A stretch of DNA of 64,000 bases. Source: Tetrahymena elliotti 4EA. Lineage: Eukaryota > Ciliophora > Oligohymenophorea > Hymenostomatida > Tetrahymenidae. The notes beneath the pieces were generated by a model. The model was not told the DNA's origin and searched no databases. It saw nothing but the letters and a program-made list of their open reading frames with translations. Shown here in pieces: positions 15,531-64,000 of the stretch (the first letter of the stretch is position 1; every line of letters begins with the position of its first letter). The DNA lies in the NCBI GenBank assembly GCA_000231825.2, contig JH720366.1, positions 309,484 through 373,483 of the forward strand, in the 5' to 3' direction. The translations under genes were made by a program, and so were the position numbers.

Positions 15531-18500
15531 TCAACTATAACTTTTTGAACCAAAGAGTTTTTTATAAGATTCAACTAATACTTCACCTCCAATATTATTA
15601 AGAATAGATTTTACAATTACAGCAGTCAATTCTTCAGATCCATTAGTAGAGTCTATATCTAACTTAGAACATTGACCTCCTGTAATTCTAGAAATTTCTT
15701 CAAAATTGTCTTTAGGTATCTAGTCTAAATAAAAACAGTGAACTGGAATTTCTTACTCTTTAAGTTTTTCTAATTCTATTTTATAGTGAGTCATTTTAGA
15801 AAATTTACTCTTTGCCCAATATTCCTCTTTTCCATATTTCATTCTATCTCTTTTAATAGCCTCTAAATCTTTAGCAGGAGCATCTCCTATTAAAATAACT
15901 TATGAAATTTTATTTAAGCTATTCTCTTAATTAGCATGCCACAAACCAATTTCAATAGCTTCTTCATAATCACCACCTCCTTATGCTTTAACGTTTTTGA
16001 TAAATTCACGCAAGTTATCTGGTTTTGATTCCCAAGGAGAACACTGTAATATACCTTCTACTTTACTATCATAATCTCTATATACTGCAAATTACATTTA
16101 GAAGCAATCACCTTCTATATTATTTTCAGCAAGAACTTTAGAAGCTCTTATGAACATTTGTTAGACAGTATCTTTTACCTTGTTTAGAAGAATTCCCATA
16201 GAACCAGTAGCATCCATTAGGCAAATAGTGCGAGAATTAGAATTTTTAAAAATAGCAGTACCTTTATTTTGTTAAATCAAGAGCTATAATGCCTTAGTTT
16301 TGCCTTCAGAACCTGTATTAAGACATTTAACTAAATTTTCTGCATTTTCGTGCTCTTTTTTTGCTTCTATTACAAAATTATCTATGTCTTAATATCTCAT
16401 ATCTGCTATTTTTATACGAGATTCATTTAATTTATTGTAAAAATTACTTTAATTTCTCATTTATTGGATTTCTTAATTGTAATTAGAACCTAAGAATTTT
16501 TCCAAATCACTGTCTAATAAAACAAGGCTTACAGAACCATCCTAACCTTAACGTGCTGTTCTTCCAAAAATCTAAATTTCTTCTGAAACTTCATCAGAAA
16601 AAAATGTAGAAATCACATGAGTACCTCCATTATTTACTACTGTTTAATCTCGGCATATAAAATCTGTTCCACGACCAAATACTTTACTTATAAAAGAAAT
16701 TGAGCCACAAGTTGTAGATTGTTTAACAAGCATATTTTTTTCTTACAATGAACTTGAAACCTGTTCAGTTATTAATTTAACTTAATGTCTAAGAGGTTAT
16801 AGTTCAGAAGATTCATAGAAAGATTAGAGCTTTTCTTAATTTTCAAAGAATACTAAAATAGCTCTATTACCTACTTTTTTATTAATTTATTCCATTAAAG
16901 TTTTATTAAAGTTATCCAAATTTTCAACATAAATATCCTCCTTTGATGCAAATTTACGTTTATTCTCTCCAAAAACACTAGGGATAAATGTTTTATGTTT
17001 GATTTTATAAATTTCTTCAACAATCTTATTTTCATATTTTGTAAGATTTTTTAATGTTCCTGTAACACCCATAATATTCTAAAATTTGTAAGGGATTTCA
17101 GCGTAGGAAAAACTACCACATCGAATACCAATAAAAGTATTTTCTTTTAATGTTGTTTCTGTAATCTTACCTTTTTCATGCTCTTTGTAGTGTGCAAACA
17201 ATGTTTTGTATCCAAATGAAATATTAAAAGAGATTCCATCTTATTCTTTATATCCAATTCTTCCATCAGCAACTTCATACTTGTGCTCATAATTTTGTAA
17301 ATCTGCCATCAAATCTTTAAGCGCTTCTTCAAGTAATTTTTACCATCCTTCAAATTATTTACAGCAATTTTAGAATGCTTATGATTACTTAGCTTAGTTG
17401 TAAGTTAGTTTATTGTCCTTCTCTTTCCAAAGGAAAGTAATCAACTCTTGAATAGTTTCATGCTTTAGACAAGCTAAAGGAGTGTAAACATTACCAAAAA
17501 ATTATGAACTAAAAAATACATCAACTTCATCTATCAATAGTATTTTTGGTCTATTATTTTTCTTTGTGGGATCTCTTTGTATAATTGGTTTATTTTCAAT
17601 CATCTCAATTACTCTATTGCGAATATCACCTTCTTCGTTAATAATTTCTTCACAAATTTTTGTAAAAGAACCATAGCTTATATGTTTTGTTAAATCCAAT
17701 ATTTCGAAAATAGGTAAAAATGATTCATAATCTCTTTAACTTAGATACTAACTATAGCAAGCACAAAGGACATCTGCTCCTAATATTACTAATATGGAAG
17801 TTGCTATTGCTAAAGTAATTGATTTTCCTTCACCTGTTCCAATTTCAATAAGATTATTCTTCAAATCTTATTTACCTTTTGTAATAAAATCTACAGCCCT
17901 ATCAAAAAATCCTTTATCAGCAGTTTTATATCCTCGTCCAAGCATTCTTAAGATAGAAATTATTTGTCCTGGATGAGGTTGTAGAATAAAATTATCTCTT
18001 GAATCTTATGAGCTATTATCATAGTAATATGATATGTTTTAAAATGACCATAAGCAGAATATTAAAGATATTAACTCAGGAATTTCTTCTTTAATATGAC
18101 CATTCCAAGTTATAACTTCATTTTTTAGCTTAGCATCTTTCTTATAAGTTTTAATTTTAGACGCTAAATTATTTAAAATAGTTTCTTCAGATTTATCTTT
18201 TCTTTCGAGTTAGACTAAACAATCTTTAATATTTTTTTAAAAATCTTAGATAATCTTTTCACACAAAGATTTTAATTTTTCTGTACACAAGTCAGTTCCA
18301 TTTATTTTTTCAATAACATAATCAACCCCATGCTTTTAGGTTTTTTAATTAAAAATAGATACTGATTATCCTTTAAAAACATTATGCTCTTATAAAATAA
18401 TCTATCCTATTCCATACATTTCAGTTTCAAGTATGGCTGCAACCAAACCGATTGTTTTTCCTCCATCTCTTTTTTCTTATCTGAGCTTTATGAGCTTATC

Positions 18501-21500
18501 ATCAATTTTTGTATCAACTTCATTTTTAATAGAACAAATATTTTCTGCAATTCTTTTCATTTAGATTAGACTGTCTGCAATTTCTTTTGGCTCACTACTT
18601 TCTTTAATATTTTTTGAATATGTTTCTACTTTATCAAAAATGGCGATTTTTATTTTTTAAAAATTTGAATCAACAATATCTTTAACTTTACGAACTTAAG
18701 TCTATTTGTTAAAATTGATCATATTTTCATATTTACAATTTAAATCTTCTAATTCTTCTTTTGTTAAATCCTTATTGTTTTATTCCATAATTTTGATACT
18801 ATCCATAGCTGACACTACTTTTTTTTTTATATTTTCAAAACAGTCATTAAAAAATTTGTCAAAATTTTCTGGTAAATGCTTTTTAAGTTATTTAGCATCT
18901 TCAAGAGCTTTGAGTTTAATATCAAGAGATTTGTAATATTCAACTTTTTGATTTTCATAACCTATTTAAAAATCAAAGCTCAAAACTTCTTCATAAACTT
19001 CCTTTAATTTTTATGAGCAAATATCTTTTGACTATTCATAGTTCCTACAACTAACTATTTGCTGAAAGTCTTCATTCTAAAAATTTTCAGTATCCTTTTC
19101 TTTAAATTAAATTTCACTATTTTAAATTTCTTTGAATAATTCATTTGTTTTTTTTAAAGAATCTAAGGCTTCTCTTAATTCTTGGATGCTTAGCTTTTAA
19201 AGTGACTATTCTAATTTTTCTTAAATTTATTTGAAATATTTATAAAATTCAGAGAATAATTCTTTAATTTCAGTTTTCAAATCTATATCCTTAGTAATAT
19301 TAGAATCTTATTTTAAGGAATAGAATGTTGCAACCATCTAAAATCTATTTTTAATTTCATCTATTTTGTCTAACTTTGGAATTTATTTTATGAAATCTAT
19401 TTATCTATTAATTTTAAATTATATTTTATTTTTTATTTAAACAGACATACCTTGAATTTCTTAAATATCTTTGAAATTCTCTTCGTAATCATTTAAATTT
19501 TTTGATAGTTCTATAATTTTTTTTGCATCGAAATTCAGAGAATTCAAATTCTCTTCAATATCTTTTTCGTAGTTTTTACATTTTTCAACAACATTTTTAT
19601 TGATTTTAGTTTTGAAATTATCCATATTATTTTTTTCACATTTTTCTCTGAACTTAAATAATCCTTTTACATCTTCTTAAATATCTGCAAGTTCTTATTG
19701 ATATCTATCATCAGTATGTTTTGCAGCCTCCTTTTACTATTCTAATTCACCTTCTAAATATTTTTTCATATCATCTGGTAGAAAATATAGAGTTTATTTG
19801 ATCTATAGAAAAAGTTCTTCTCTATCATTAGATGAAGCTTCTTTCAATCCTCTTATCTTCTAAATAATTTTTGTATGAATATTTTTTTTAATTTCTTTTA
19901 AAGATTATTGATATCTCGAACTACGATTTGCAACTTTTTCGAGCTTTTCTAAAATCTGTTTTGGTTATTTGAGTAAGTATTGATCTTAGTCAATATTAAT
20001 GTATTCTTAGGCATTTTTTTCAACAATGTCTTCAATTTATTACTATAATTCTTCAACTTTTTTAGTTAAACTTTCATCTAAGCATATGTTTCCTAAAATT
20101 TAACATATTTACAAAATCTTTTCTCTTTTATTTTCTGCTTCCTCAAAATCATCAGCTTTAATCAAAGACATAATACTTTCAATATACTTTGTAATTTTGT
20201 CTTAGATGATTCCTTTTATTTCTTCTAAATCATTATCAATCCAAAATTTTGTTTAGGGAGAAGTAACTTTAATACCTTATTATCTGCTAAGAGAACACTA
20301 TTATTCTAGATCTTCTTTGTTTTCCAAGCCATTCTCCTCCTTTAAAAATTAAGGGACATATTTCTGAGCATTATTGACTTTACTTAAATTTTTAACAATA
20401 TTATTCAATTCATTCTATATTTAAAGATCATTATTTAGCATTAGAGAAATAGATGTTCTTTTTGTATTTTCTAAAATTTCTTTAACTGTAATGTTAATGT
20501 TATGCCTAATTTATTCCATAGCTTTATTATTCATATTATCATCTATACCTAACAACTCAGCAGCTACTTTTTAAAATTCGCAATCATTAATCAAGTTAAA
20601 AATTTTTTTATAAATATCTCTTATACCCTCAGTAAATTTAGATTAGTATGACTTGTATAATTAGTAGTAATTATTCTCTTCGTTTATGAAAAAATCTAAT
20701 TAAGTCAAAGCTTTAGCAATATCTAAATGAACCCTTACACTTTAGCCATTTAATGTAGATTAATTCATTTATTCACGAAGATCAATCAAATTTTATGAAA
20801 TATTTTTTTTCCATTAATTGAGAAGCTCTCTTCCTTTAACAATTTCAAATACTTTTGGATAAGATGATATATCCATTATTTCCTGTAAACTAGAAGCTAG
20901 TTACTGTGAATATTAAAATGCTTCAATTATTTTTTGATCTGAAACTATACTTTTTATTTTTACAAAATTATTATTTAACTTTTTGCTCATATTCTCTTCA
21001 TAATTTTTCAGGAATTTATTTACATGATGCTATTATAAATTCCTTGCATCATCTCTAAGTGTTCTTATTTTTTAACATTATTCAAGATAATTTAATGCAT
21101 CTTCAGCTAATTGGCCATCTAATTTTCCAAAAATATATTCCTAGTCTATTTTTTCTGTATTCATTATTTCTTATTATAATTTTTCTATTATTTTCTCCAA
21201 AGATCTGATACTTTCAATTTCATGTTTCTTAAGCAGCTCTTCTTTTTCCGCTTTCAGTTCCTCTGATTAGAGTAAATTTTAATACCCTTCTATGATAGAT
21301 CTTTATTTTTGTAATATTTCTTAATTAGCAATCAATAATTTTTATTTTTCTTGTATTTCAATCATACTTTCAAATTTTTCAATATCTTACTATACATCCT
21401 CAGTGTTTTGGTATTTTTATTAACTCAACTAATTTTTCTATTTTAATTAAGATTTTTAATTAATTTTCTCCTTGTTATGATTGTTTTTATTTCTTTCAAT

Positions 21501-24500
21501 CTCATCAATCAAATTGATTTTAATCAATTTTAATTCATTTATTTGCTTTTCATAATCAGTATCTATATCTATTTTGTTTTCTGGAATATCTTTTTAAATT
21601 TAATTCACTTTATCCTCTAATTCCTGGAATTATTTACTAAATTCATTTAAATCTTCAATTTTATTTTCTTTTAAATATTTAACAAGAGATGGTACATTAT
21701 GATACTAGTTTTAAATATCTTATAATTTTTTTAGCTATTACTTTTGATTATGGACTGCTTTGCTATCTAAATTAAATGTTTTTTGAATTAATGAAAATAC
21801 ATCTGAAGTTGATTTTTAAAACTTTTATTCAGCAATTTCACGATATTTTTACAACTATGGAATTTTTTCTTCAAAAGAGCGCATAGCCTAAATTTATGAT
21901 AGATAACCCCATGCTTTTTCTATATTTTTATAGTTATGTATGTCTAAATCCGTATCTAAAAGCTATTCAGATATTATGCAATCATGATTTATTAAATCGT
22001 CAATTATATTTTTCATTATATCATTAAATGAATCCTCTCTAATACCATCCATCCATTGTGCATCCACTAGTCTTTTTACGCAACGAAAAACTTTCTCATA
22101 GTTGACATTTTAAGGCGAATGATGGAATACTGATAAAAGCATTTCTGCATCTCTTCTTATCTCTTGCATTTTACCAAAAACACTTTAAGTAGTTTGATGA
22201 AACTATTCTTATATTTTTTCTGAATGAATTTAAGTATCCTTTATCAATTTCATTTGATTGATACGACATTCAATATCTTTAAAAGATTTTTAGGATTCAC
22301 TATTAAGGATTTCATTAATTTCTTTACAAAGATTTTCAAATTTTTTGAAAATTCTTTCATTTAAATTATTTATTACATTTTAAATTTTATCTACTGAAAT
22401 ATGTTCTCTCAATTCATATGTTTCTTTAACTTCAACAAGCTCTTAAACAATTTATTTTATTTTATCTTAGCTTTCTTTGTTAAATTCATTTTTTAAAATA
22501 GGATCAGCTTCCTTTGTGATTTAAAATAATTAGTTAATTAGCAATTATATCAAATTATTATATTAAATTCTTAGTTAATCATTATTACAATGATCAGCAT
22601 ATTAAGCTATTTATTAGTTAATTTATGATAAATTTTCAGAAAATACTTAATAATTCTTACTCTTTAAAGCATTTTCTGCTTAATTTAATATTTATTATTA
22701 AATTTATTATATTTTCTAATTTAATTTATTATATTATTCTTCTAGTTCAGGAAATTCACTTGCCAATAGCCTTTAATTGTCAAATTTATTTTTTTGTTAA
22801 TTATATTCTTTAATAGTATTTTCATCCAGCTCTGAGTTGATTTCTTAAATTATAGCCTTCAAATTTTAAATTAATGATTCAGACTAGAACAAATCATTTC
22901 CCAAATGACTTACTCTTAATTGATCTATTTCCTTAAATTCGTAAATACACTTTTTGTATTCTTTAATATCCTCTATGCTTAAGCTGTTATTTTTTTTAAG
23001 GTTTCTGTTGAATGACTCAGTAATCTTTTTATAGTTTTGGTTTAGATTATTTTTTATGTATGAGACACTTTCTTCATAAATATTTTTTAATTAATTTTGA
23101 TTGAGGGTCTTTATCAAATAATACATATCATCAAGTTTATGTTTTATTAAAAGAAAATCGTTTCTTTTTATAGCTGATATAATACTTGATTTGTGTAAAT
23201 TAAGTTGATCACGTAAAACTTCCTTTGATTTTTCAGTTATTGATACAGTAAATACTTCGTCTGGATTTTATATTGGTTTTTATTTTAAAATATAGTTGAT
23301 ACAATCTGAAGGCTTTCCTTTCAATGCGTCAACTTTTTAACCTGGTTTTTCAGCCATATTTTCAAAAAGTGACACAAATTATTCATCATGATTTTCATTT
23401 GGATCATTTTGAATAGCCATATATATAGATCTTAAGAGAGCAGTAATTCCTTCAATACTTTTATCATTGAATTTTGTATATAAATATGAGAAAGAATATT
23501 AATATTCTTCTACATTCTTAATAAGTCCTACAAGAGTACGGGCTAGTGTTTTAATACCTTCTCCTCTATCCCCAATGCTCTGATTACTGGCCAGGATAAT
23601 TGGTCTAACACTCTTACAACCTTGTATAGCTTGCACAACACCTATTCCATTAGCTATATCTACTTCTGCACCAGCTGTATCACCAAAACCAGGAGTATCA
23701 CAAATTGTTATAGTTTAATTTTTTAACATTCCTAAATTTTTTGTATTTAAATTTATAGCTGTTAAGAATCTAGTTTCAGATTTACTAAATGGACTTACTA
23801 TTATTTTCTATAAGTTAGAATCTTATATTTTTTCAACAACAGGACCAATATATTGTAAGATATCTCCTTAAGGAAGCGTTACTTATTGCATTTTCATTTC
23901 AGAGCCTGCTAGAAAATGTATGGTTGTAGATTTACCAGCGCCTGTACCTCCAAGTAACAATAAAATGTCTTTGTTTTCAATCTGTTTTGCAGAATCTTCT
24001 GTTTTTTTGATTAAGCGCTTTAATTCAAAAATGTTAAGTGGTCTCAAAAACTTCAAAAGCTATAAAGCATAACTTTAAATTTCCGATAAATTAAAATTAT
24101 TAATTGAATATTTTATAGAACTAACAAACGATTTAGCATTTTCAGTCATCAGATCTTCAGCCAAAAGTAATCTTTGTATTACTTCCATCTACTAGGATAA
24201 TTTTGTTTAGCTGATTTTATTATTATCATCATTATTGTTTGGAGTGTTTCCTAACAAATTAATTATTTAATTAAGAAGAATAAGTATTTACTTTTCTGCG
24301 CATTATGGATATTATAATATATCTTCTTCAAGTGAAATTTATTCCTCAAGAAGCTTTTTCAAGCTTATTTGATTTTATATTTATTAACTTTAATTTGTTT
24401 CATATTAACCTATTTAAGAATAAGTTGATTGAGCTAATTCACTTTATTTACATTCTATCTTTTATTCTTCTTCTTCTTCTTCCTCCTCCTCTTCTTTATT

Positions 24501-25601
24501 TTGATTTTGTAATTTCTAAATTTCTTGGTAAATATTTTACAATTTTAAAACTTATTCTAAGAACTCTTTTCTTTCTTTAACTAGCCTAGTCCTTTTATTT
24601 TTCTCAAACTCTAAGATATCTTCTTTAATTTTACTAATTTCATTTTCTAGCTAATCGCTACTTTCAAGTTCGATATCTTTTAATCCTTATTCCAGTTATT
24701 ATTTTAATTCATTTAGCTTACTTTATTTTTGATCTCCATAATCAGTTTACAACTTTTAGTAAATTTCAAACAATTTTTCAAGTTTTTCAAGTTACTTTTA
24801 ATTTTGCTATGCAAAATTATTTCTCTTTGATGCGAGAAGTGTTTAGATCTCCTCTTTTTATCTCTTAATTTCACTTTCTAATTAATCACCACTTTAAAGA
24901 TCGAAATCATTCAATCCTTACTAAAGCTATTATTTTAAAATATCTAGTCTTCTCTATTCATTATCATCCATCAAACTTTACAACTTTTAGGCAATTTTTT
25001 ATAAGTTTTCAAGCTTCTCAAGAGATTTTTTTCTTTTCTAAACTGTTTCAGTCTTCTTTAATTCTTCTAATTTTTAGATTTCATTTTTTTTTGCTGTAAT
25101 TTCACTTTCTAACTGATCTCCGCTTTCAAGGTCTATATCTTTTAATCCATTCTCTAGTTATTATTGAAGATCAGAAATGTATTAACATTTATCATCTTGT
25201 TTAAAATCGCTAAGCTTTAAGTGAATATTTTTCAAATGTTGAAGCTTCTCGAGTGATTTTTTTCTCTATAAGGCTGTATTTACTTTATTATCTCTTTCCA
25301 GTTTTTATATCTCATTAATTTTTTTTTTTATTTCATTTTCTAGCTCATTTCCACTTTCAAGATCAAATTCTTTTAAGCCTTAGTTTAAAGATTTCTTCAG
25401 CTCTTCAAGGTCTATTTCAGTAGATGAAATCGATTCAACTTATAAATTTTAATTAGAGTATTATGGTATTCTTAGCAATTGTTTTCTCTCTATAGTAAAG
25501 CTCTACAAATTAGAAGTCTCTTTCATAGTCTGATCAGGTTATTACAGAGATGAGTTCTCTTGTGTTTAGTCTTTCTCGCTATCACTGTCAAATAAATCCA
25601 T
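15531..25601 (-). CDS. Giant GTPase / coiled-coil / SecA-like motor / vWA protein, copy A
   Basis: With code 6 this is one apparently intronless frame of 3357 codons; start, P-loop, SecA motifs, vWA motif and TGA stop share the same phase. It begins MDLFDSDSEKDQ. Residues about 60-430 are coiled-coil repeats of about 77 residues. A P-loop GTPase follows: G1 GGTGAGKST near 551, G3 DTPGFGD near 635, possible G4 YTKFND. About 1850 helical residues come next. The SecA-type motor has QPHPGQII (2541), GTGEGKS (2588), LLIDEVD (about 2691), GVTGT (2845), GRGTDF (2976) and GRTARQGQDGS (3013). The vWA domain has MDATGSM (3130), QFAVYRDYD and GGGD, and resembles vWA of alpha-kinase proteins. It ends KSYS. 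No signal peptide or membrane span was noticed. Function is unknown; the SecA similarity concerns the motor only, so calling it a translocase would be wrong. Confidence 0.85.
24480..25440 (-). repeat. N-terminal coiled-coil repeat array of copy A
   Basis: Protein-level repeats with a 231-base (77-residue) period; equivalent points lie at about 24779, 25010 and 25241. Each unit carries a version of KKSLEKLENL, a short variable linker, then QLENGLKDIDLESGD and QLENEI. At least three to four units are visible. Confidence 0.85.
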
Positions 25602-28671: not shown

Positions 28672-31600
28672 TCAACTATAACTCTTTCCACAAAAGAGTT
28701 TTTTGTAAGATTAGACTAATTTTTCGCCACCTATATTATTAAGAATAGATTCTGTAATTATACCAGTTAATTATTCAGATCCATTATCAGAGTTTATATC
28801 CAACTTTGAGCATTTACCTCCAGTAAATGTAGAAATTTCTTAGAAATTTTCTTATGTCCCTTCATCTAAGTAAAAACTATGGACAGGAATTCCTTACTCT
28901 TTAAGTTTTTTTAATTCTTTTTTATAGTGAGTCATTTTAGAAAATTTACTCTCTAACCAATATTTATCCCCTCCATAATAGTTTCTATCTTTTTCTATAG
29001 CCTTTTTATCTTTAGCTGGAGCATCTCCTATTAAAATTACTTATGAGATTTTATTTAATTTATGCTCTTAATTAGCATGCCACAAACCGATTTCAATAGC
29101 TTCTTCATAATCACCACCACCTTAAGCTTTAACATTTTTGATAAATTCACGTAAATTATCTGGTTTTGATTCCCAAGTAGAGCTATTTAATATTCCTTCT
29201 ATTTTATTATCGTAATCTCTGTATACTGCAAATTACATCTGGAAGCAATCATCTTCAATTTTATTTTCATTAAGAACAGCAGAAGCTCTAAAGAACATTT
29301 ATTAGACAGTATCCTTTACCTTACTTAGAAGACCTCCCATAGAACCAGTAGCATCCATTAAACAAATTGTACGAGAATTAGAACTACTAAGAAGAGTAGC
29401 ACCTTTATTTTGTAAAATCAAAAGCTCTAATAACTCATCTTTACCTTCAGTACCTGAATTAAGACACTTAACTAACTTTTCTGCATTTTCATGCTCTTTT
29501 TTTGCTTTAGTTACACAAATATCTGTGTCTTTATATCTCATATCTGCTATTTTTTATCGAGATTCAGTCAGTTTATCATAAAAATTATTTTTTTCTCTCA
29601 TGTTAGTGATTTGTTAATTGTAATTAGAACCTAAGAATTTTTCCAAATCATTCTCTAATAAGACAAGGCTGACAGAGCCATCTTAACCTTAACGCGCTGT
29701 TCTACCAAGAATCTAGATTTCTTCTGAAGCTTCATCAGAAAAAAATGTAGAAATCACATGAGTACCTCCATTATTTACTACTGTTTAATCTCGGCATATA
29801 AAATCTGTTCCACGACCAAATACTTTACTTATAAAAGAAATTGAGCCACATGTTGTAGATTGTTTAATAAGCATATTTTTTTCTTACAACGAGCTTGAAA
29901 CCTATTCAGTTATTAATTTTACATTATTTTTAAGAGGTTCGATTTCAGAAGATTCATAGAAAGATTATAGCTTTTCTTTATTTTCAAAGAATACTAAAAT
30001 AGCTCTTTTATCTAATTTTTTATTAATTTAATCTATTAAAGTTTTATTATAATTATCCAAATTTTCTACATAAATATCCTCCTTTGTTGCAAATTTACGT
30101 TTATTTTCTCCAAAAACACTAGGGATAAATGTTTTATGTTAGATTTAATAAATTTCTTCAACAATTTTAGTTTCATATTTTGTAAGATTTTGTAATGTTC
30201 CTGTTACACCCATAATATACTTAAACTTGTGAGGGATTTCAGCATACGAAAAGCTACCACAACGTATACCAATGAAAGTATTTTCTTTTAATGTTGTTTA
30301 TGTAATCTTACCCTTTTCATATTCTTCATAGTGGGCAAATAATGTCTTGTAGCCATATGAGATATTAAAAGAAATTCCATCCTATTCTTTATATCCAATT
30401 CTTCCATCAGTTGTAACTTCATACTCATGCTCGTAATTTTGTAAATCTGCTATCAAATCTTTCAGTGCTTCATCAAGCAATTTTTACCATCCTTCAAATT
30501 TTTTACAGCAATTCTAGAATGCTTATGATTGCTTAGCTTTCTGATAAGTTAATTTATTATTCTTCTCTTTCCAAAGGAAAGTAATTAACTCTTCAATAGT
30601 TTCGTGCTTAAGACGAGCTAAAGGAGTATATACATTACCATAGAATTGTGTACTAAAAAATACATCAACTTCATCTATCAACAAAATTTTTGGTCTTTTA
30701 TTTTTGTTGGAGGCCTCTGTTTTTATAATAGGCTAATTTTCAATCAATTTAATTACTCTGTTACGAACATCACCTTCTTCGTTGATAATTTCTTCACAAA
30801 TTTTTGTAAAAGGTCCATAGTTTATATGTTGAATTAAATCTAGTTTTTCAAATATGGGTAAAAATGAATCATAATCTCTTTAGCTTAGATACTAACTATA
30901 GCAAGCACAACTAACATCTGCTCCTAATATAGCTAATATGGAAGTTGTAACAGCTAAAGTAACTGATTTTCCTTCGCCTGTACCAATTTCAATAAGATTA
31001 TTCCTTAATTTATCATCATTTATTATTTCGTTTTTAACAAAAACGCCTTTCACCCTCTCCACAAATTTTTTATTTTCTTTTATAGAATCATATCCTAGTC
31101 CAAGCATTCTTAGGATAGATATAATTTGCCCTGGATGAGGCTGTAACATAAATTCGTTTTATGAGTCTTATGATTTAGAGGATACATTTTCATTGTAGTA
31201 TTCAATGTTTTAAAATGACCACAAACTGAATATTAAGGATATTAATTTAGGAATACCCTTTTTAACGTTAGCATCCCAAATTAAATCTCCATTTTTGGCT
31301 TCTTACTTAAATTCTTTAATTTAACTCACTAAATTATTCAAAATATTTTCTTGAGATATTTTTTTTGACTCGAGTTATAATAAACAGTATTTCATAAGTT
31401 CTTAAAAACGCTATTTTATCTTATTATGTAAAGTTTCTAATCTTTCTTAACTCAAATCATTTCCCTTTATTTTATCAATAACATATTTAACCCCATGCTT
31501 TTATGTTTTTAAATTAAAAATAGCAATAGATTATCCTTTAAAAATAGTATGTTCAGATAAAAGAATCTTTCCTATTCCTTTAGGTTCTTTTTCAAGTATT

Positions 31601-40527: not shown

Positions 40528-40560
40528 ATTAATTATTACAATATTATGAAAAAGAAAGTA

Positions 40561-50700: not shown

Positions 50701-52148
50701 GAAAGTTCAGCTTATATTTTTGAAGCTTACATTGTTCTATTTTAACTCTCAAAATTTGAAATTTACTATTTTTTTTAAGTAATTTCATTCTCTAACTAAT
50801 CTCCACTTTAGAGTTCAAATTCTTCTAATCCTTAATTTAATTATTTCTGGAGATCAATTATTTTTTCTTCTTATTAATCAGATTAATTTCTGTTCAAATC
50901 TATGTGTATCTTCAACAAACTTTCAAGCTTTTCAAGTGATTTTTTTCTTTAAAAAGCTTATTTTATCTTTTTTTGCTTCTCCAAGGTTAATATTTCTTCT
51001 TTTTTTTTAGTAACTTCATTCTCCAACTCATTTCCGCTTTCCAGCTCTAATTCTTCTAATCCTTTATTCAGTTATTTATAGAGATTAGCAATACTTCTTG
51101 TCTCTTCATCACCCTAAATACTCTTCAACTCTAAGTAAATCTTAAACAAATTTTCAAGCTTTTCAAGTTATTTTTTTGCTTGAGAAGCTAATCGAGTCCT
51201 ATTTTATTTCTGAAAACTTAAGGCTTCCTCTTTTTTTTGAAAAATTTCACCCATAATCAGATTCCCACTTTACAATTCAAATTCTTCTAATCCTTCATTA
51301 AGTTGCTTCTACAAATTATCATGATTTTTTCCTTCCTCATTATCTTAATGATTGTTTAAATCTAAGTAAATTTTAAACAAATTTTCCAGTTTTTCTAGTG
51401 ATTTTTTTCTTTCAAGAGTTAATTTAATTCTATTTTATTTTTCAAGAGTTTAAATTTGCTAATTTTTTTAAATTATTTCGTTCTCTAGTGATTCACCACT
51501 TGGCAATTCTAATTCTTCTAATCCTTGATTTAGTTATTTTTATAGATTCTCAAGTTTTAAAACTTTTTCATTGCTAAAACTATTATCAAATACTTTGTTA
51601 ATCTGGGAAACATTTTCTAACTTTTCAAGTTATTTTTTTCCTTCTAAGGGTTAGACAGGCTTATTTTAACTTTGAATGATTTAAATTTCCATTTTTTATT
51701 CAACATCTTTTCCTTATTATTAATCTCCACTTTATAATTCAGTCTCTTAAAAACTGTATTCTGGTTTAGTGTAAATAGTATCTATAGTTCCATGCTTTTC
51801 ATCACTTATTGAATTGTTTCCTTATTCATCAATGTCATAGCATTTTTATCTTTAAATTCCTTAATCAATTTCAGTGACTATTTATTAGTTTAAACTATGA
51901 TTTGAAATATTATTTTACTAATTATTGCTCTTTAACCCTTAGTCTACTTCTTCTGCTTCTTTAAGTAATATCTCTTTTTCATTATTGATTATCTATTATG
52001 GTGAATTACATTTAGAGGTTTCATCATTTTACAAGCTTACATTTTCTTTATCATCCTATTCTTAGCCTATGCTTTTAAGCTTGTTTTATGTAAAATAATA
52101 ATTTTACTCTTCATCTCTTTGAGATTCTTCATCACATGATGGATTCAT
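41704..52148 (-). pseudogene. Giant GTPase / SecA-like motor / vWA gene, copy C, with two frameshifts
   Basis: The most diverged copy. It begins MNPSCDEESQ and ends KNYS. It has the same domain order, but the frame changes twice by one extra base: near 50211-50230 (between the N-terminal repeats and the GTPase) and near 48540 (in the helical region). Beyond each point the old frame soon meets TGA while the shifted frame continues the family sequence. G1 is GTTGTGKS near 50029 and G3 is DTPGFCD instead of DTPGFGD. The motor is intact in sequence: GTGEGKS near 44004, LLIDEVD, GRGTDF, GRTARQGQDGS. The vWA has MDATGSM near 42387, but GGDD replaces GGGD near 42155. It is either a decaying gene or an intact gene with two sequence errors in short A or G runs; unrecognised short introns are less likely. 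Confidence 0.7.
50660..51720 (-). repeat. N-terminal coiled-coil repeat array of copy C
   Basis: Equivalent points at about 50924, 51155, 51386 and 51617 give an exact 231-base (77-residue) period. Units carry KKSLEKLENLFKIYLDL then LQKQLNQGLEEFELQSGD. The constant spacing contrasts with copy B. Confidence 0.88.
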
Positions 52149-52482
52149 TTTGGTATTTTTTTCTCTTCTCTTTATAATTTTGTATGTTTTTTAATTCTTT
52201 ACTGCTATTTTCGTTATCAAATATTTTGATTAGTATTTAAGCAGGAATCATTCACATTTTTTTTAAATTATGTTGATATTCAGCCTATTTACTTACCCTA
52301 TCTATCTTTAGAATTTTTTTAAAGAAAAGGAAAATATGAATCTCAATTTAATGGGTATATTATAATAATATTCTATATCTACCATACATTTTAAAAAAAA
52401 AGTTTCTATAAACCAACATTTTTAATTAAATATCAATACATCAATTTATGAAATCCGATGGTTAATCCTCTCAGTTATTTTA

Positions 52483-52700: not shown

Positions 52701-52760
52701 TTCCCTATATTATTAAAAATTGAGATTAATTCTTTTTGGAAAATGTAAACATCTTTCATT

Positions 52761-53881: not shown

Positions 53882-56800
53882 TCAACTATAACTCTTACTT
53901 CCAAAGAGTTTTTTGTAAGATTAAACTAATTCTTCACCACCTATGTTATTAAGAATAGATTCTGTTATGATACCAGTTAATTATTCGGATCCATTAGCTG
54001 AGTTTATATCCAACTTAGAGCATTTACCCCCTGTAAATTTAGAAATTTCTTCAAAATTTTCTTTTGCTCCTGAATGTAAATAAAAACTATGGACAGGAAT
54101 TTCTTACGCTTTAAGTTTTTCTAATTCTATTTTATAGTGAGTCATGGTAGAAAATTTACTACTTGCCCAATATTCCTCTTTTCCATATTCCATTCTATCT
54201 CTTTTAATAGCCTCTAAATCTTTAGCAGGAGCATCTCCTATTAAAATGATTTATGAAATTTTATGTAAGCTATGCTCTTAATTAGCATGCCACAAACCAA
54301 TTTCAATAGCTTCTTCATAGTCACCACCTCCTTATGCTTTAACATTTTTGATAAATTCACGTAAGTTATCTGGTTTCGATTCCCAAGGAGANNNNNNNNN
54401 NNNNNNNNNNNNNNNNNNNNNNNNNNNNNNNNNNNNNNNNNNNNNNNNNNNNNNNNNNNNNNNNNNNNNNNNNNNNNNNNNNNNNNNNNNNNNNNNNNNN
54501 NNNNNNNNNNNNNNNNNNNNNNNNNNNNNNNNNNNNNNNNNNNNNNNNNNNNNNNNNNNNNNNNNNNNNNNNNNNNNNNNNNNNNNNNNNNNNNNNNNNN
54601 NNNNNNNNNNNNNNNNNNNNNNNNNNNNNNNNNNNNNNNNNNNNNNNNNNNNNNNNNNNNNNNNNNNNNNNNNNNNNNNNNNNNNNNNNNNNNNNNNNNN
54701 NNNNNNNNNNNNNNNNNNNNNNNNNNNNNNNNNNNNNNNNNNNNNNNNNNNNNNNNNNNNNNNNNNNNNNNNNNNNNNNNNNNNNNNNNNNNNNNNNNNN
54801 NNNNNNNNNNNNNNNNNNNNNNNNNNNNNNNNNNNNNNNNNNNNNNNNNNNNNNNNNNNNNNNNNNNNNNNNNNNNNNNNNNNNNNNNNNNNNNNNNNNN
54901 NNNNNNNNNNNNNNNNNNNNNNNNNNNNNNNNNNNNNNNNNNNNNNNNNNNNNNNNNNNNNNNNNNNNNNNNNNNNNNNNNNNNNNNNNNNNNNNNNNNN
55001 NNNNNNNNNNNNNNNNNNNNNNNNNNNNNNNNNNNNNNNNNNNNNNNNNNNNNNNNNNNNNNNNNNNNNNNNNNNNNNNNNNNNNNNNNNNNNNNNNNNN
55101 NNNNNNNNNNNNNNNNNNNNNNNNNNNNNNNNNNNNNNNNNNNNNNNNNNNNNNNNNNNNNNNNNNNNNNNNNNNNNNNNNNNNNNNNNNNNNNNNNNNN
55201 NNNNNNNNNNNNNNNNNNNNNNNNNNNNNNNNNNNNNNNNNNNNNNNNNNNNNNNNNNNTTCTTAATTTTCAAAGAATACTAAAATAGCTCTTTTATCTA
55301 ATTTTTTATTAATTTAATCTATTAAAGTTTTATAATAATTATCTGAATTTTCAACATAAACATCATCTTTTTTGGCAAATTTACGTTTATTATCTCCAAA
55401 AACACTAGGGAGAAATGTTTTATGTTTGATTTTATAAATTTCTTCAACAATCTTAGTTTCATATTCTGTAAGATTTTTTAATGTTCCTGTTACACCCATA
55501 ATATTCTAAAATTTGTGAGGGATTTCATCATACGAAAAGCTACCACATCTAATACCAATGAAAGTATTTTCTTTTAATGTTGTTTTTGTAATCTTACCCC
55601 TTGCATATTCTTTGTAATAGGCAAATAATGTTTTGTAACCAAATGAAATGTTAAAAGAAATTCCATCTTATTCTTTATACCCAATTCTTCCATCAGTTGT
55701 AACTTCATACTCATGCTCGTAATTTTGTAAATCTGCCATCAAATCTTTAAGGGCCTCTTCAAGTAATTTTTACCATCCTTCAAATTATTTACAGCAATTC
55801 AAAAATTCTTATGAGTTCTTAGCTTAGCTATAAGTTAATTTATTATTTCTCTCATTCCAAAGGAAAGTAATCAAATCTTCTATTGTTTCATGCTTTAGAC
55901 GGGCTAAAGGAGTATAAACATTACCATAGAATTATGTACTAAAAAATACATCAACTTCATCTATCAACAATATTTTTGGTCTTTTATTTTTCTTTGTGGC
56001 ATCCTTTTCTAAAATTGACTTATTTTCTATCATCTTAATTACTCTGTTACGAACATCACCTTCTTCATTGATAATTTCTTCACAAATTTTTGTAAAAGGA
56101 CCATAGCTTATATGTTTTGTTAGATCCAACATTTCAAATATAGGTAAAAATGATTCATAATCTCTTTAACTTAGATACTAACTATAGCAAGCACAACTAA
56201 CATCTGCTCCTAATATTACTAATATGGAAGCTGTTACTGCTAAAGTAACTGATTTTCCTTCACCTGTTCCTATTTCAATAAGATTATTCTTTAATTTATC
56301 ATCATTAAGTAATTCTTTTCCATCAATTTCCATAAAAGTTTCTGCCAATTTATCTAAAATTCCTTTTTCCTTCATAATATCATATCCTATTCCAAGCATT
56401 CTTAAGATAGAAATAATTTGACCTGGATGGGGTTGTAAAATAAAGCTTTCTCTTGATTTAGAGGAGCTATTGTCATAGTAGTATTATATGTTTTAAAATG
56501 ACCACAAACAGAATATTAAAGATATTAATTTAGGGATATTATTTTTAGTTTTAGCATTCCATTCCAAAACTCCTTTTTTGGGTTCTTTCTTAAATTTTTT
56601 AATTTCAAGTACTAAATCACTCAAAATATTTTTTTGAGGTATTTTTTTTGACTCTAGATCAACTAAACAATCTTTTATTTTTGCTTAAAAACTATCTTAA
56701 ATCAATTCATACAAAGATTTTAATCTTGTTTTACTTAAATCATCTCCATTTATTCTTTGAATAACATAATCAACTCCATGCTTTTATATTTTTTGATTAA

Positions 56801-59800
56801 AAATAGCAATAGATGATCCTTTAAAAATATTATGTTCTGATAAAATAATCTATCCAATTCCATCAAGTTCTTTTTCAAGTATTGTTGCAATCAAACCTAT
56901 TGTTTTCCCTCCATCGTTTTTTGCTTATCTTAACTTTTAAAGCTTATCATCAATTTTTTAATCAACTTCATTTTTAACAGAATAAATATAATCTGCAATT
57001 CTCTTCATTTAAACTATGCTATTTACCACTTATTAAACATCACTGCTTTCAATAACATTCTTGGAATATGATTCAACTTTATTTTAAATGGCTATTTTTA
57101 TTTTTTAATAATTTGGCTCAACAACTTATTTAACTTTATTAACTGTAACTTATAAGTTAAAATTGATCATATTTTCATATTTAATATTTAAATCTTCTAA
57201 TTCTTGTTTTGTTAAATACTCATTTTTTTCAATTATTTGTTTTGCATTTTCCAATTCTGACTCTAATTTTTTGTTTATTTTTTCAATGCAATCTTGGTCA
57301 TATTTTTCTATATCAAAATTTTCTTTTTAGAAATGCTTTTAAAGCTTCTTAGCATCTTCAAGAACTTAGAGTTTTTAATCAAGAGATTTGTAATATTTAA
57401 CCTTTTCACTTTCACAACCTTTTTAAAAATCAAATTTTAAAACTTCTTCACAAACATTCTTTAATTTTTAATAAGAATAATCTAGAGATTGTTCATAGGT
57501 TCTGCATTAAACTATTTGTTAAAATTGTTAATTCTCAAAGCTTTCTTTAGCTTTTTCTTTAAATAAGATTTCACTCTTTTTAATTTCTTTCAATATTTCA
57601 TTTCTTTTTTCTATTGACTCTAAAGCTTCTCCTAATTCATTCATATTTAACTTTTCAAGGGACTATTCTAACTTTTCTTAAATTGATTTGAAGTATTTAG
57701 AAAGTTCAATGAATAATTCACTAATATCTTTTTTCAAATCTATATCCTTTGTTAAATTAGAATCTTATTTTAAGGAACAAAAAGTGGCAACCATCTCAAA
57801 CTTACTCTTAATTTCTTCTACTTTGTCTAATTTTGAAATTTATTTCACAAAGTCAATTGATCTAGAAATTTTTTAAGTTATTTCCTTTTTTATTTCATCA
57901 GACATTCCTTCTATTCCTATTCCTCCAATATCTTTAAAATTTTCTAATAAATTATTTAGATTTTTTGAGACATCTATTATTTTTTTTATATCACCTTACT
58001 CAAGATTTTTATCAATTTCTGTTTTGCTTTCTTTGCATTATTCAGCAATATTTTTATCGATTTTGTTTTTGAAGTTGTCCATCTTATTTTTTTCACATCT
58101 TTCACGGAATTTTTATAATTAATTAACATCTTAACAACTTTTAATATCTTCAAATTCTTTTTCATATCTCTCTTCAGTTCTTTTAACAGCTTCTTTTTAT
58201 TATTTTAATTCAGCTTCTAAATAGAGTTTCATATCATCTTGTAGAAAATGTAATGTTTGTTCGATCAATTGAATTTATTCTTCTCTATCATGTGACGAAG
58301 CATCTTTCAATCCTTTGAGCTATTCTCTAATTTTGGTATGGATATTTTCTTTAATTTTATTATAGGATTATGTATATTTTATGCTACGATTTGCAACTTT
58401 TTTGAGTTTTTCTAAAATTTGTTTGGGTGGGGTAATTAAATATTTATCTTAAGGCATTTCAATGTATTCATCTGCAATTTTATCAACAATTTTTTCAATA
58501 GATGTCTATAATAGATCAACCTTTTTTGTTAATTTTTCTTCAACACATAAGTCTCCTAAAATTTAACATATTTATAAGACATTTTCTCTTTTGTTTTCTG
58601 CTTCCTCAAAATCATTAGCTTAAATCAAAGCCTCTATACTATCAATATATTTTGAAATTTTCTCTTAAATGATTGATTTTATTAAATCTAAATCTACATC
58701 AATCTAAAATTTTGTTTATTTAATGCTAGTTTATCTCTTCAAAGTTTTTTCAGGTTATTCTTCTGTATCTTCTTTTTTTTATGAATCAGAATTGTTTTTA
58801 GAAGGTGCTTAATTCAAAAATTAAGGAACATATTTCTTAGCGTTATTAACTTTACTTAAATTTTCAACAATAAGATTCATATTTTCAAACTATTTTGCAA
58901 GTTCACTGTTTAAAATTAGAGAAATAGATTTTCTTTTTGTGTTTTCTATGATTTCTGTTACAGTAATGTTAATGTTATGTCTAATTTATTCCATAGCTTT
59001 ATTGGTCATATTATCATCTATATCTAACAACTCGCCAGCTACTTATTAAAATTCGCAATCTTCAATCAATTTAAGAATAGTTTTATAAATGTCTCTTATG
59101 CCCTCAGTAAGTTTAGATTAGTATTACTTGAATAGTTAATAATAATTATTCTCTTCATTTATGAAAAAATCCAATTAAGTCAAAGCTTTAGCAATATCTA
59201 AATGAATTCTTACGCTTTGACCATTTAATGTACATTAATGCATTTATTCACGTAGCTCGATCAAATTTTATTAAATATTTTTTCTCCACAAACTGAGAAG
59301 CTCTCTTCCTTTAATAATTTCATAAACTTTTGCATAGGATTAAATATCTATTATTTCCTATAAACTTGAAGCAAGCTGTTGTGAATATTTAAATGCTGCA
59401 CTTGTTTCACCTGAAACAATACTTTTAATTTATACAAAATTATTATTTAGCTCTTTACTAATATTCTCTACATACTTTTTCAAGAATTTATTAACATGAT
59501 GCTATTGTAATTTATTGGCATCTTCTCTAAGTTATTTTATTTTTTTACATTATTCAAGATAATTTAATGCATCTTCAACTAATTGACTATCTAATTTTCC
59601 AAAAATATAATCCTACTCTATTTTTTCTGTCTCCTCTATTTTCTATTCTAAATCTTTTATTTTATCATCTAAAGATTTTATATTCTTAAATTCATTTTTC
59701 TAAAGCAACTCTTCTTTTTCAGTTTTGAGTTACTCTGAATTTTGTAAAATTTAATAATTTTCTTAGATAGATGTTTGTCTCAACAGTGCTTCTTATTTAC

Positions 59801-62800
59801 GAATTAATTATTTTTATGATAATTGTGCTTAAGCTATTTAACTCAATTGTTAAATTTCTTCCTCTACTTCTTCAATATTTGAATATTTAAATTTATGAGT
59901 TTAATTTTTTTAATTTTATTATTTATTTTTATCCTTTTTTTAGTTTGTTTTTTCCTCAAGCTCTTCAATTAATTTCAATTTCTCAAATCTTGCTTCATCT
60001 ATTTTTTTTTAATAATCTGTATCCATATCCACCTGAATTTATGGGATATTATTTTTTAGTGAAATAACTTCCTTCTCTAATTCTTCTAATTTTTAACAAA
60101 ATTAAGGATAATCTTCCATTTTATTTTCTTTTAAATATTTAGCAAGAGATGATGGATTATTGTATTCATCTTAAATTCCTTTTAATTTCTTTAGTTATTA
60201 TTTATGACTATGGACTGCTTAGCTATCTAAGTTAAATGTTTTATTAATAAATTCAAAGACATCCGAAGATGATTTTTAAAACTTTTATTCAGCGCTTACA
60301 CGATACTTTGACAACTATGGAATTTTTTCTTCAAAAGGACTCATAGCCTAAATTTGTGATACATAACCCCATGCTTTTTCTAAATTTTTATAGCTAGATA
60401 TATCCAAATCTGTATCTGAAAGTTAATCAAATATAATTCGACTATGTTTTATTAAATCATCAGTAATGTTTTTCATGACATTATTAAATGAATCTTCTCT
60501 AATACCATCCATCCATTATGCATCCACTAACTACTTCACACAACGATAAACTTTATCATAATCAACACTTTAAGGAGAATGATGGAATGTTGATAAAATC
60601 ATTTCTGCATCTCTTCTGATCTCTTACATTTTACCAAAAACGCTTTAAGTTGTTTGATGGAACTATTCTTATATTCTTTCAGAATTACTTTAAGTCTCCT
60701 TTATCAATTTCATTTGATTGATCAAACATTCAATATCTTTGAAAGATTTTTAAGACTCACTATTAAGAATTTCATTAATTTCATTACAAAGCTTTTAAAA
60801 TTTTTTGAAAATTTTTTCATTGAAATCATTGATTACGTTTTAAATCTTTTCCACTGCAATATGTTCTCTTAATTCGTATGTATCTTTAACTTCAAGAAGC
60901 TCTTAAACAATTTATTTTATTTTATCTGAACTTTCTTAATTAAATTCATTCTTTAAAATAGGATCTGCTTACAGTGTGATTTAAACCAATTAATTAATTA
61001 ACAATTATACCAAGTTATTATATTAGATTTATAGTTAATCATTATTACAATGATCAGCATATTAAGTTATTTGTTAGTTTATATATGATAGGTTTTCAGA
61101 AAATTCTTTATAATTCTTACTCTTTAAAGCGCTTTCTGCATTACTTATGATATGGTATTGTATCTATTGTATTTTCTACTACAAATTATAATATTATTCT
61201 TGTAGCTAAGGAAATTCGTTTGCCAATAGTTTTTGATTGTCAAATTTATTTTTTTGTTAATTATATTCTTTAATAGTATTTTCATCCAATCCTGCATTGA
61301 TCTCTAAAATAAAAGACTTCAAATTTTAGATTAATGACTCAGACTAGAACAAATCATTTCCTAAATGAGTTACTCTTAATTGATCAATTTACTTAAATTC
61401 ATAAATACACTTCTTGTATTCTCTAATATCCTCTATGCTTAAGCTATTATTTTTTTTAAGGTTTCTGTTAAATTACTCTGTTATTTTTTAATAGTTTTGG
61501 TTTAAATTATTTTTTATGAATGAAACACTTTCTTCATAAATATTTTTTAACTATTTTTAATTGAGGGTTTCAATCAAATAAATCATATCGTCTAGCTTAT
61601 GTTTTATTAATATAAAATCATTCCTTTTTGTAGCTGATATAATGCTTGATTTGTGTAAATTAAGCTGATCACGTATAACTTCCCTTGATTTATCTGTAAT
61701 TGATACAATAAAGACTTCATTTGGATTTTAGATTGGGCATTACTTTAAAATGTACTTAATACAATCTGAAGGTTTTCCTTTCAATACATCAACTTTTTAA
61801 CCTGTATTTTCAGCCATATTTTCAAAAAGAGATACAAATTACAGGTCATGATTTTCATTTGGATCATTTTAAATAGCTGTAAATATAGATTTTAACAAAG
61901 CAGAAATTCCTTCAATACTTTTATCATTAAATTTAGTATAAAGATATGAGAAAGAATCTAAATGATCTTCTACTTTTTTGATAAGTCCTACAAGTATACG
62001 GGCTAATGTTCTAATACCTTCTCCTCTATCTCCAATACTTTGGTTACTAGCAAGGATAATTGGTCTTACACTCTTACAGCCTTGTATAGCTTATACAATA
62101 CCTATTCCATTTGCAATATCTACTTCAGCACCAGCTGTATCTCCAAAACCAGGAGTATCACAAATAATTAAAGATTACTCTTTTAACATTCCTAAATTTT
62201 TAGTATTTATATTTATAGCAGTTAAGAATCTAGTTTCAGATACAGCGAATGGACTTACTATTATTTTCTTTAAGTTGACATCCTTAATTTTGTCAACAAC
62301 AGGACCAATGTATTATAAGACATCACCTCCAGGAAGCGATACCGATTGCATTTTCATTTCAGAACCCGCTAAGAAATGGATAGTTGTAGATTTACCTGCA
62401 CCAGTACCTCCAAGTAGCAATAAAATGTCTTTGTTTTCAATCTGTTTTGCAGAATCTTCTGTTTTTTTGATTAAGCGCTTTAACTCAAATATGTTAAGTG
62501 GCCTCAAAAACTTCAAAAGCTATTAAGCATAACTATAAATTTCTTATAAATTTAAATTGCTAGTTGAATATTTCATAGAACTAACTATAGATTTAGCATT
62601 CTCAGTCATTAAATCTTCTACTAAAAGTAGCTTTTGTATTATTTCGATCTGTTGAGATAGCTTTGTTTAGTTATTTTTACTATCATCATTTTAACAAGGT
62701 GTGTTTCCTTATAAACCAATTACTTAATTAAGAAGGATAAGTATTTCCTTTTCTGCGCATTCTGGATATGATAATATATCTTCTTAAAGTGAAATTTATT

Positions 62801-64000
62801 CTTCAAGAAGCTACTTCAAGCTATTTTGAATTGTTTGAATTGCTATTTCTTAACTTTAATTATTTTCATAAAGGCCTCTTTAAGAGTAGGTTAATTCAAC
62901 TTATTCACTTTATTTAAACTCTATCTTTGATTCTTCTTCTTCTTTATCTTTATTTTGATTTTGATTTTGATATTTCTAAATTTCTTGGTAAATACTTTAC
63001 AATTTTAAAATTTATTCTAAGAACTCTTTTCTTTGTTTAACTAGCCTAGTTCTATTATTTTTTTCAAACTCTAAGATATCTTATTTTATTTTACTAATTT
63101 CATTTTCTAGCAAATCACCACTTTCAAGTTCAATATCTTTTAATCCTTATTCTAATTATTACTTTAGCTCATTTAGCTTGTTTTATTCTTGATTACCCTT
63201 ATCAGCTTCTAACTTTTAATAAATTTAATATAAATTTTCAAGCTTTTGAAGAGATAATTATCTTTATAAAGCTTATTTCTCTCTCTTTTATTACTTAAGT
63301 GTTGAGATATCCTCTATTTTTTTCTTGATTTCATTTTCTAGCTAATCACCACTTTCAAGATCCACCTCTTTTAACCCATTTTCTAGTTAAAACAGAAGGT
63401 CAGAGTTTTTATTAGCTTTACTATCGTTTTGACCGAAATTGTTGATTTACTAATAAATTTTAAACAAATTTTCAAGTTTTTCAAGAGATTGCTATCTTTA
63501 TAAAGCTTATTTCTCTCTCTTTTATAGCTTAAGTGTTGAGATATCCTCTATTTTTTTCTTGATTTCTTTTTCTAGTTAATCACCACTTTCAAGATCTACC
63601 TCTTTTAACCCATCTTCTAGTTATTATAGAAGGTCAGAGTTATTATTAGCTTTATTCTCACTTTGACTAGAATTGTTGATTTATTAATAAATTTTAAACA
63701 AATTTTCAAGCTTTTCAAGAGATTGTTATCTCTATAAGGCTTATTTATCTCTTTTTTACTATTTCAGTATTTAAATTAACTCTTTTTTTGCTGCAATTTC
63801 ACTTTCCAAATAGTCACCACTTTCAAGGTCCACCTCTTTTAATCCATTCTCAAGTTATATTTAAAGGCCAGCTGCATTATCATTTTAGCTAGAACTGTTG
63901 ATTTTTTAATAAATCTTAAACAAATTTTCAAGCTTTTCGAGAGACTTTTATCTTTATAAAACTTATTTATCTCTCTTTTATAATTTAAGCCTTTCAATTA
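53882..64000 (-). CDS. Giant GTPase / coiled-coil / SecA-like motor / vWA protein, copy D, N-terminus beyond the window and an internal gap
   Basis: The C-terminus (ending KSYS, TGA at 53882-53884) and vWA half lie left of the N run; the motor and everything upstream lie to the right. Visible: N-terminal repeats from 64000 to about 63000, G1 GGTGAGKST near 62411, G3 DTPGFGD near 62160, a long helical region, QPHPGQII near 56440, GTGEGKS near 56270, LLIDEVD near 55960 and GVTGT near 55496. The gap removes the second half of the motor and the MIDAS strand of the vWA domain. G1, GTGEGKS and GVTGT share one frame; the stop is in another, which the gap length explains. The sequence is very close to copies A and B. 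No break was noticed outside the gap. Confidence 0.8.
54392..55259. other. Assembly gap (run of N)
   Basis: 868 undetermined bases inside copy D. The matching interval in copy A, from the end of 'cccaaggaga' to the start of 'ttcttaattttc', is 792 bases (16041-16832). The filled length is not a multiple of three and breaks the frame, so it is probably an estimate and not the real length. Confidence 0.97.
63000..64000 (-). repeat. N-terminal coiled-coil repeat array of copy D (continues past the window)
   Basis: Equivalent points at about 63239, 63473, 63707 and 63929 give steps of 78, 78 and 74 residues. Units read like QSLEKLENLFKIYQQI, a short Ser/Asn linker, then QLEDGLKEVDLESGD. Neighbouring units share long identical DNA blocks, a sign of recent local duplication. 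Confidence 0.88.

What the first reader, a model, noticed from the sequence alone, without database searches (positions are those of the whole stretch)
15531..64000. Tandem array of giant eukaryotic proteins joining a GTPase, a SecA-type motor and a vWA domain
Four head-to-tail paralogues fill three quarters of the window. Each places a P-loop GTPase upstream, about 1900 helical residues in the middle, a full SecA-type DEAD motor, and a C-terminal vWA domain of the alpha-kinase-associated type. All motor motifs needed for ATP hydrolysis are present (GEGKS, DEVD, GVTGT, GRGTD, GRTARQG). Known SecA is a bacterial and plastid translocase, and no signal, membrane or transit segment was noticed here, so the motor has probably been reused in the cytosol. 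Two different NTPases in one chain, a metal-dependent adhesion domain, and copy and repeat-number variation resemble self versus non-self or large remodelling machines; that role is inference.
Basis: partly seen in the sequence, partly recalled or inferred. Interest (0 to 1): 0.93.

Follow-up and report, generated by a model that had tools for sequence, protein, structure and literature searches.

The report
Giant GTPase, SecA-motor, vWA protein array
A row of giant ciliate genes encodes proteins of about 3,400 residues that join a GTPase switch, a SecA-like motor (in bacteria SecA pushes proteins through membranes) and a metal-binding docking domain; relatives with the same layout occur in rotifers, Hydra, other protists and a few bacteria, and their job is unknown.

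The parts
15531..25601 (-). Copy 1, single open frame, 3356 aa (code 6)
24519..25406 (-). Copy 1 N-terminal helical repeats, 4 units of ~65 aa (res 66-361)
22857..24089 (-). Copy 1 G domain with start of helical region (res 505-915), GIMAP/Toc/Era-like fold, GGTGAGKST ... DTPGFGDT ... TKF
18015..22856 (-). Copy 1 long, mostly helical region (res 916-2529; 916-1300 and 2260-2529 modelled, 1301-2259 not modelled)
16272..18014 (-). Copy 1 SecA-type DEAD motor (res 2530-3110), all named motifs present
15534..16259 (-). Copy 1 C-terminal vWA with MIDAS (res 3115-3356)
28672..40110 (-). Copy 2, single open frame, 3812 aa, 9 N-terminal repeat units
35908..37140 (-). Copy 2 G domain (res 991-1401)
29416..31158 (-). 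Copy 2 SecA-type motor (limits by offset from copy 1)
28675..29403 (-). Copy 2 vWA (limits by offset from copy 1)
41704..52220 (-). Copy 3, frame-broken (breaks at about 50220 and 48536): repeats, G domain and motor-vWA in three frames
42436..44178 (-). Copy 3 SecA-type motor (limits by offset from copy 1)
41707..42423 (-). Copy 3 vWA (limits by offset from copy 1)
53885..64000 (-). Copy 4, N-terminus beyond the window edge; 868-base N gap at 54392-55259
61317..62549 (-). Copy 4 G domain
55260..56444 (-). Copy 4 SecA-type motor, first part up to the gap (start by offset from copy 1)
53885..54391 (-). Copy 4 vWA, part after the gap

Best explanation
Each gene makes one giant soluble machine. 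The C-terminal SecA-type ATPase is expected, from what SecA does, to grip and pull a polypeptide. The GIMAP/Toc-like G domain 1,600 residues upstream acts as a switch or self-assembly module that licenses the motor. The vWA domain at the C-terminus holds a partner or peptide through its metal site, and the N-terminal helical repeats (other modules such as U-box or lectin in some relatives) bring the machine to its target. The most likely job is ATP-driven extraction or unfolding of protein assemblies in the cytosol, in protein quality control or in defence against intracellular invaders. Shown: domain order, motifs, predicted folds, purifying selection, wide conservation. Inferred: polypeptide substrate, GTP gating, cytosolic place, and the role.
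Confidence: 0.45

Rival explanations
1. Cell-autonomous immune machine: like GBPs, GIMAPs or the bacterial MoxR-vWA-GTPase conflict systems, it senses invaders through variable N-termini, assembles by the GTPase, and motor and vWA deploy the response.
For: GIMAP-like G domain; lectin + GBP swap in P0041; amplified and decaying tandem copies; regions 1301-1464 and 2260-2529 evolve faster than the catalytic parts (dN/dS 0.49-0.86 and 0.56-0.86). Published bacterial conflict systems pair MoxR motors with vWA, some with AIG/GIMAP-type GTPases (PMC7159879, passages seen).
Against: No induction data; no dN/dS above 1; no Pfam effector domain in the three window proteins scanned.
Confidence: 0.3
2. 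Housekeeping unfoldase or quality-control factor, linked to ubiquitin and Hsp70 by U-box, RING and DnaJ modules in some relatives, with no role in immunity.
For: U-box, DnaJ and RING in relatives; strong constraint on G domain and motor.
Against: Patchy presence and copy turnover are unusual for housekeeping genes; in prokaryotes it is rare (1 of 36 genomes in the order of one carrier, 3 of 151 in Chlamydiota, each count including the carrier that defined the group).
Confidence: 0.3
3. A true translocase: a membrane-docked motor pushing proteins into a vacuole, phagosome or organelle.
For: SecA fold and a 42-residue helix behind the motor; Toc34, high in the G-domain list, is a chloroplast import GTPase.
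Against: No N-terminal targeting or membrane segment seen; no Pfam match to SecA wing or tail; no partner channel known.
Confidence: 0.12
4. Nucleic-acid helicase or translocase that merely resembles SecA.
For: Generic Helicase_C matches below cut-off; structural matches to DDX21 (5.4e-6) and HamB of Hachiman (2.0e-5).
Against: In Foldseek ranks 1-35 are all SecA, from 2.2e-15 to 9.6e-10; the best other row is a spliceosome chain at 3.2e-6. No helicase family in the profile search of solved structures.
Confidence: 0.08
5. SecA-like segment of a bacterial-type toxin or effector, spread between intracellular bacteria and protists.
For: Bacterial carriers include Legionellales and Chlamydiae MAGs, the first near a protein with weak, below-cut-off matches to Dot/Icm effector models; bacteria are not one clade in the tree (AU p 1e-7); SecA-like ATPases occur with toxin domains in some bacterial proteins (PMC8195603, passage seen).
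Against: No toxin domain found in the window-type proteins scanned; most relatives that bear a source name are eukaryotic; ciliate copies are under purifying selection.
Confidence: 0.1

Closest known systems
SecA / SecA2 preprotein translocase motor
   Same: DEAD motor motifs, two-lobed fold, profile match of the second lobe, insert at the clamp position and a long helix behind the second lobe in the model
   Different: About 16-18% identity over the best structural alignments; no Pfam match to preprotein domain, wing or tail; fused to G domain and vWA; no known channel
GIMAP/AIG1 and Toc34/33 GTPases
   Different: Era (12.5) and HflX (12.3) are close behind; no AIG1 Pfam hit; atypical G4; inside a 3,400-residue chain
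MIDAS vWA domains (PF25106 VWA_4; TFIIH p44, integrin beta, CMG2 folds)
   Different: At the C-terminus of a SecA-type motor; ligand unknown; the link to alpha-kinase vWA is recalled, not tested
MoxR-vWA ternary and GTPase-centred conflict systems (Kaur et al. 2020, PMC7159879)
   Same: Motor ATPase, peptide-binding vWA, septin/GIMAP-clade GTPase and swapped accessory domains (passages seen)
   Different: Motor is SecA-type, not MoxR AAA+; one chain, not an operon; mainly eukaryotic among named hits; 'SecA' does not occur in that paper's main text
Guanylate-binding proteins (GBP)
   Same: Large immune GTPases (recalled); one relative (P0041) has a GBP G domain where others have this family's G domain
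   Different: GBPs carry no ATP motor or vWA (recalled)

Membership tests
SecA translocase | DEAD motor motifs (GEGKS/T, DEVD, GxTGT, GRGTD, GRxxRQG) | tested here: met
   (copies 1 and 2; copy 4 is cut by the gap)
SecA translocase | NBD1/NBD2 SecA fold | tested here: met
SecA translocase | Preprotein cross-linking (clamp) domain between motifs II and III | tested here: inconclusive
   about 150-residue insert in the model; no PF01043 hit in copies 1-3; profile alignment does not cover it
SecA translocase | Helical wing and scaffold (PF07516) | tested here: inconclusive
   no Pfam hit up to E 0.1, but a 42-residue helix follows the motor in the model
SecA translocase | SEC-C zinc tail (PF02810) | tested here: not met
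   no hit up to E 0.1; vWA occupies the C-terminus. Some SecA2 lack this tail too (recalled), so it is a weak criterion
SecA translocase | SecYEG partner and export function | not testable with these tools
   -
GIMAP/AIG1-Toc GTPases | Septin-like TRAFAC G-domain fold | tested here: met
GIMAP/AIG1-Toc GTPases | AIG1 family profile (PF04548, accession recalled) | tested here: not met
   no hit up to E 0.1 in copies 1 and 2
MIDAS vWA domains | Rossmann-like vWA fold with MIDAS | tested here: met
MoxR-vWA conflict systems | MoxR-clade AAA+ ATPase | tested here: not met
   motor is SecA-type; no MoxR hit up to E 0.1
MoxR-vWA conflict systems | vWA plus swapped effector or accessory domains | tested here: inconclusive
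   vWA present; accessory domains only in a minority of relatives

The most novel reading that the evidence does not exclude
Eukaryotes, including animals, possess an undescribed class of cytosolic protein-pulling machine built on a SecA-type motor, gated by a GIMAP-like GTPase and guided by a MIDAS vWA, which works as a cell-autonomous defence or extraction engine and has been exchanged several times between eukaryotes and their intracellular bacteria.
Probability: 0.3. Interest if true: 0.95.

Novelty: new variant of a known kind. Interest (0 to 1): 0.78.

Why it matters
SecA is the textbook bacterial export motor. A conserved family of roughly 3,000-residue proteins that places a SecA-type engine beside a GTPase and a docking domain in ciliates, rotifers, Hydra and other eukaryotes would mean that this engine class is not confined to export. 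If the polypeptide-pulling reading holds, it would be a cytosolic unfoldase class outside AAA+, present in animals that can be cultured and in a genetically tractable genus (Tetrahymena), and a concrete candidate for defence or proteostasis in unicellular eukaryotes.

Tried and rejected
Considered and dropped. (a) Transfer between Hydra and Tetrahymena: Hydra with three unnamed proteins is sister to Tetrahymena in the 51-row tree, but holding Hydra with bdelloid clade 2 and Brachionus is not rejected (AU p 0.42), nor is Tetrahymena + Blepharisma (p 0.19), so I do not claim it. Hydra, bdelloids and Brachionus (12 rows; mosquitoes not included) as one clade is rejected (p 6e-54), and so are the bdelloids alone (7 rows, p 7e-57), but ancient duplication explains both as well as transfer does. 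Eight bacterial rows as one clade are rejected (p 1e-7); P0088 was counted as bacterial only because it is 75% identical to P0077, and L036-L038 are fragments or short forms. (b) Death domain in P0096: on the N-terminal repeat, no stretch passing alone. (c) Viral origin: of 136 pattern stretches in IMG/VR none is a relative (two short patterns only). (d) Papain after vWA in P0071 may be a gene-model fusion; not used. (e) Literature: ten searches of an open-access library; I saw listings and starts of abstracts, and passages of two papers. The other listed papers were not opened; subscription papers and preprints are not covered. (f) The number of window-type motors elsewhere in this genome is unsettled, because that search did not complete; others (25 SecA_DEAD matches; 18 G-domain matches) are lower bounds.

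Rows dropped or counted with care: the 224 rows are 213 P proteins (four of them the window's own copies), six bacterial loci and five own paralogues; P0125 and L035 are the same protein, counted twice. Of 222 rows hit by the motor-vWA profile, 24 were left out of the first tree for coverage; 51 of the remaining 198 were picked by hand for the second. In one search vWA could be compared only for copies 1 and 2, because copies 4 and 5 are cut at their gaps; copy 3 was left out. Only the best 120 of 410 hits were listed, and one search scored only the candidates sharing most words.

Full report
What is there. The window is G000:C76:309484-373483 of a 90-Mb genome read with the ciliate code; the closest named relatives are Tetrahymena malaccensis and T. 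utriculariae proteins at 64-68% identity over residues 2520-3356. On the minus strand lie four copies of one gene, and two more follow towards the contig end. Copies 1 and 2 are single frames of 3356 and 3812 codons; 20 random windows of the same first-order make-up gave at most 737. Copy 3 is broken in two places. Copy 4 has an 868-base run of N. Copy 6 has repeats and G domain, a second copy of part of the middle region, and no motor in its frame. The array therefore shows gain and decay of copies.

Is it SecA? As a motor, yes: motifs, fold, profile match of the second lobe, an insert where SecA has its clamp and a long helix behind the second lobe. As a translocase family member I do not file it: no Pfam match to preprotein domain, wing/scaffold or zinc tail was found, and vWA takes the C-terminus. 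These absences are weak tests at this divergence. A second, more SecA-like set of giant proteins exists elsewhere in the genome: SecA_DEAD 5e-38 (C30) and 4e-31 (C10), with preprotein-domain matches of 22.2 and 24.8 bits around the 23.5-bit cut-off. It should not be confused with this family.

One chain. Of 224 rows collected (six bacterial loci and own paralogues; one protein twice), 208 match the motor-vWA profile above 150 bits, 162 reach into vWA, 139 also carry the G domain above 40 bits, 122 have all three; the G domain is before the motor in all 139. From G-domain end to motor-profile start the median is 1,438 residues, the central 90% 1,324-1,598, the extremes 572 and 1,930, in 111 rows with complete ends. 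Many of the rest lack the G-domain end because they are shorter records, partly by the length limits of the search. In the window's genome a G-domain match lies 4.3-4.8 kb upstream of a SecA_DEAD match on the same strand at seven further places (C7 two, C14 two, C87 two, C15 one; positions); an eighth is the C7:1236316 frame. Of the 18 G-domain matches, five have no same-strand SecA_DEAD match listed nearby. Twelve of 139 rows end within 60 residues after the motor without vWA, among them three own C7 genes and two bacterial rows; some of these are probably truncated records.

Who has it. Named carriers of all three parts: Tetrahymena, Blepharisma, Hydra vulgaris (on contigs of 52 Mb, so not stray contamination), Rotaria, Adineta, Brachionus and a Gammaproteobacteria MAG. 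The foraminiferan Reticulomyxa has two partial records, one with G domain and motor, one with motor and vWA. The diatom Epithemia protein P0141 has G domain (125 bits), motor and a vWA of another Pfam family. Shorter or more distant forms occur in Hexamita, Cylindrotheca, Polarella, Aedes and Culex. A scan of one genome for each of 84,980 prokaryote species gave 92 pattern stretches and 7 relatives, a lower bound because it rests on two short patterns; one of the seven (L040) looks like the second family. Around L034, L035 and L039, eight of ten neighbours scanned matched NCBI families, among them DnaE, RecJ, aconitase, SpoVR and PrkA. In the order of the Legionellales carrier 1 of 36 genomes has it (itself), and in Chlamydiota 3 of 151 (one being the starting carrier; for the other two only the motor match was seen). 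Sporadic presence and rejection of one bacterial clade fit several transfers between bacteria and eukaryotes; direction was not determined.

Accessory modules. Of the 120 rows listed, 10 have another precomputed Pfam domain, four of them only other P-loop models. Confirmed by my own scans: U-box at the N-terminus of the gammaproteobacterial P0077 (4.8e-10) and Jacalin lectin plus a GBP G domain in P0041; DnaJ before the motor in P0146, RING after the motor in P0185 and P0195, protein kinase after the motor in P0167. The last three are short records without a G domain. These are ubiquitin, chaperone, lectin and signalling parts. The Death label of P0096 was rejected.

Selection. Between copies 1, 2, 4 and 5 dN/dS (my division of the values) is 0.14-0.24 (G domain), 0.19-0.21 (916-1300), 0.33-0.48 (1465-2259), 0.22-0.33 (motor), 0.33-0.41 (N-terminal 480 residues), and 0.33 for vWA in the one pair that could be compared. 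The loosest parts are 1301-1464 (0.49-0.86) and 2260-2529, just before the motor (0.56-0.86). Nothing exceeds 1. The catalytic engines are held; the connecting parts drift or diversify.

How it most likely works. Shown: order, predicted folds, motifs, constraint. From established knowledge (recalled): SecA motors pull polypeptide; GIMAP/Toc/GBP G domains switch and self-associate; MIDAS vWA domains bind a ligand through a metal. Published bacterial conflict systems combine a MoxR motor, vWA and in some cases a septin/GIMAP-clade GTPase (PMC7159879, passages). Inferred: the GTPase assembles or licenses the motor, vWA holds client or partner, repeats or swapped N-termini target it, and ATP hydrolysis extracts or unfolds protein assemblies in the cytosol. 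I put 0.45 on this mechanism; defence and quality control are about equally likely uses.

Novelty. In ten searches of an open-access library I found no paper on these proteins (listed in Tried and rejected); databases name them by labels such as 'SecA family profile domain-containing' or 'helicase carboxy-terminal domain'. Each part is known; the chain and its context are, as far as seen, undescribed.

Noticed in passing
window 13206-14555 (+): ORF with the C-terminus of COPI coatomer alpha (PF06957, 3.7e-48), next to the array.
   Followed up: partly
G000:C30, C10, C32, C8 (L016, L019) and L040: A second family of giant SecA-like proteins with much stronger SecA_DEAD matches (up to 5e-38 in L016); preprotein-domain matches in L016 and L019. 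L040 is a 4438-aa protein of a Legionella MAG with SecA_DEAD 6.9e-24.
   Followed up: partly
G000:C7:1187398-1192656 and 1230302-1235296 (+): Large ORFs with the G domain and no same-strand SecA_DEAD match listed nearby, lying among the GTPase-SecA genes without vWA.
   Followed up: partly
C76:393672-404399 (L011, L012): Copy 6: repeats, G domain, a second set of repeats and a second copy of part of the middle region, no motor or vWA in its frame.
   Followed up: partly
P0203, P0204, P0206, P0207: Aedes and Culex proteins of 1,415-1,508 residues distantly related to this motor.
   Followed up: no
P0041: Unnamed-source protein joining Jacalin lectin, GBP G domain, SecA-type motor and a match to the vWA part of the profile.
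   Followed up: partly
L034:15846-18179 (-): Protein with weak, below-cut-off matches to Dot/Icm effector models (AnkY, AnkH, AnkG) near the Legionellales gene.
   Followed up: no
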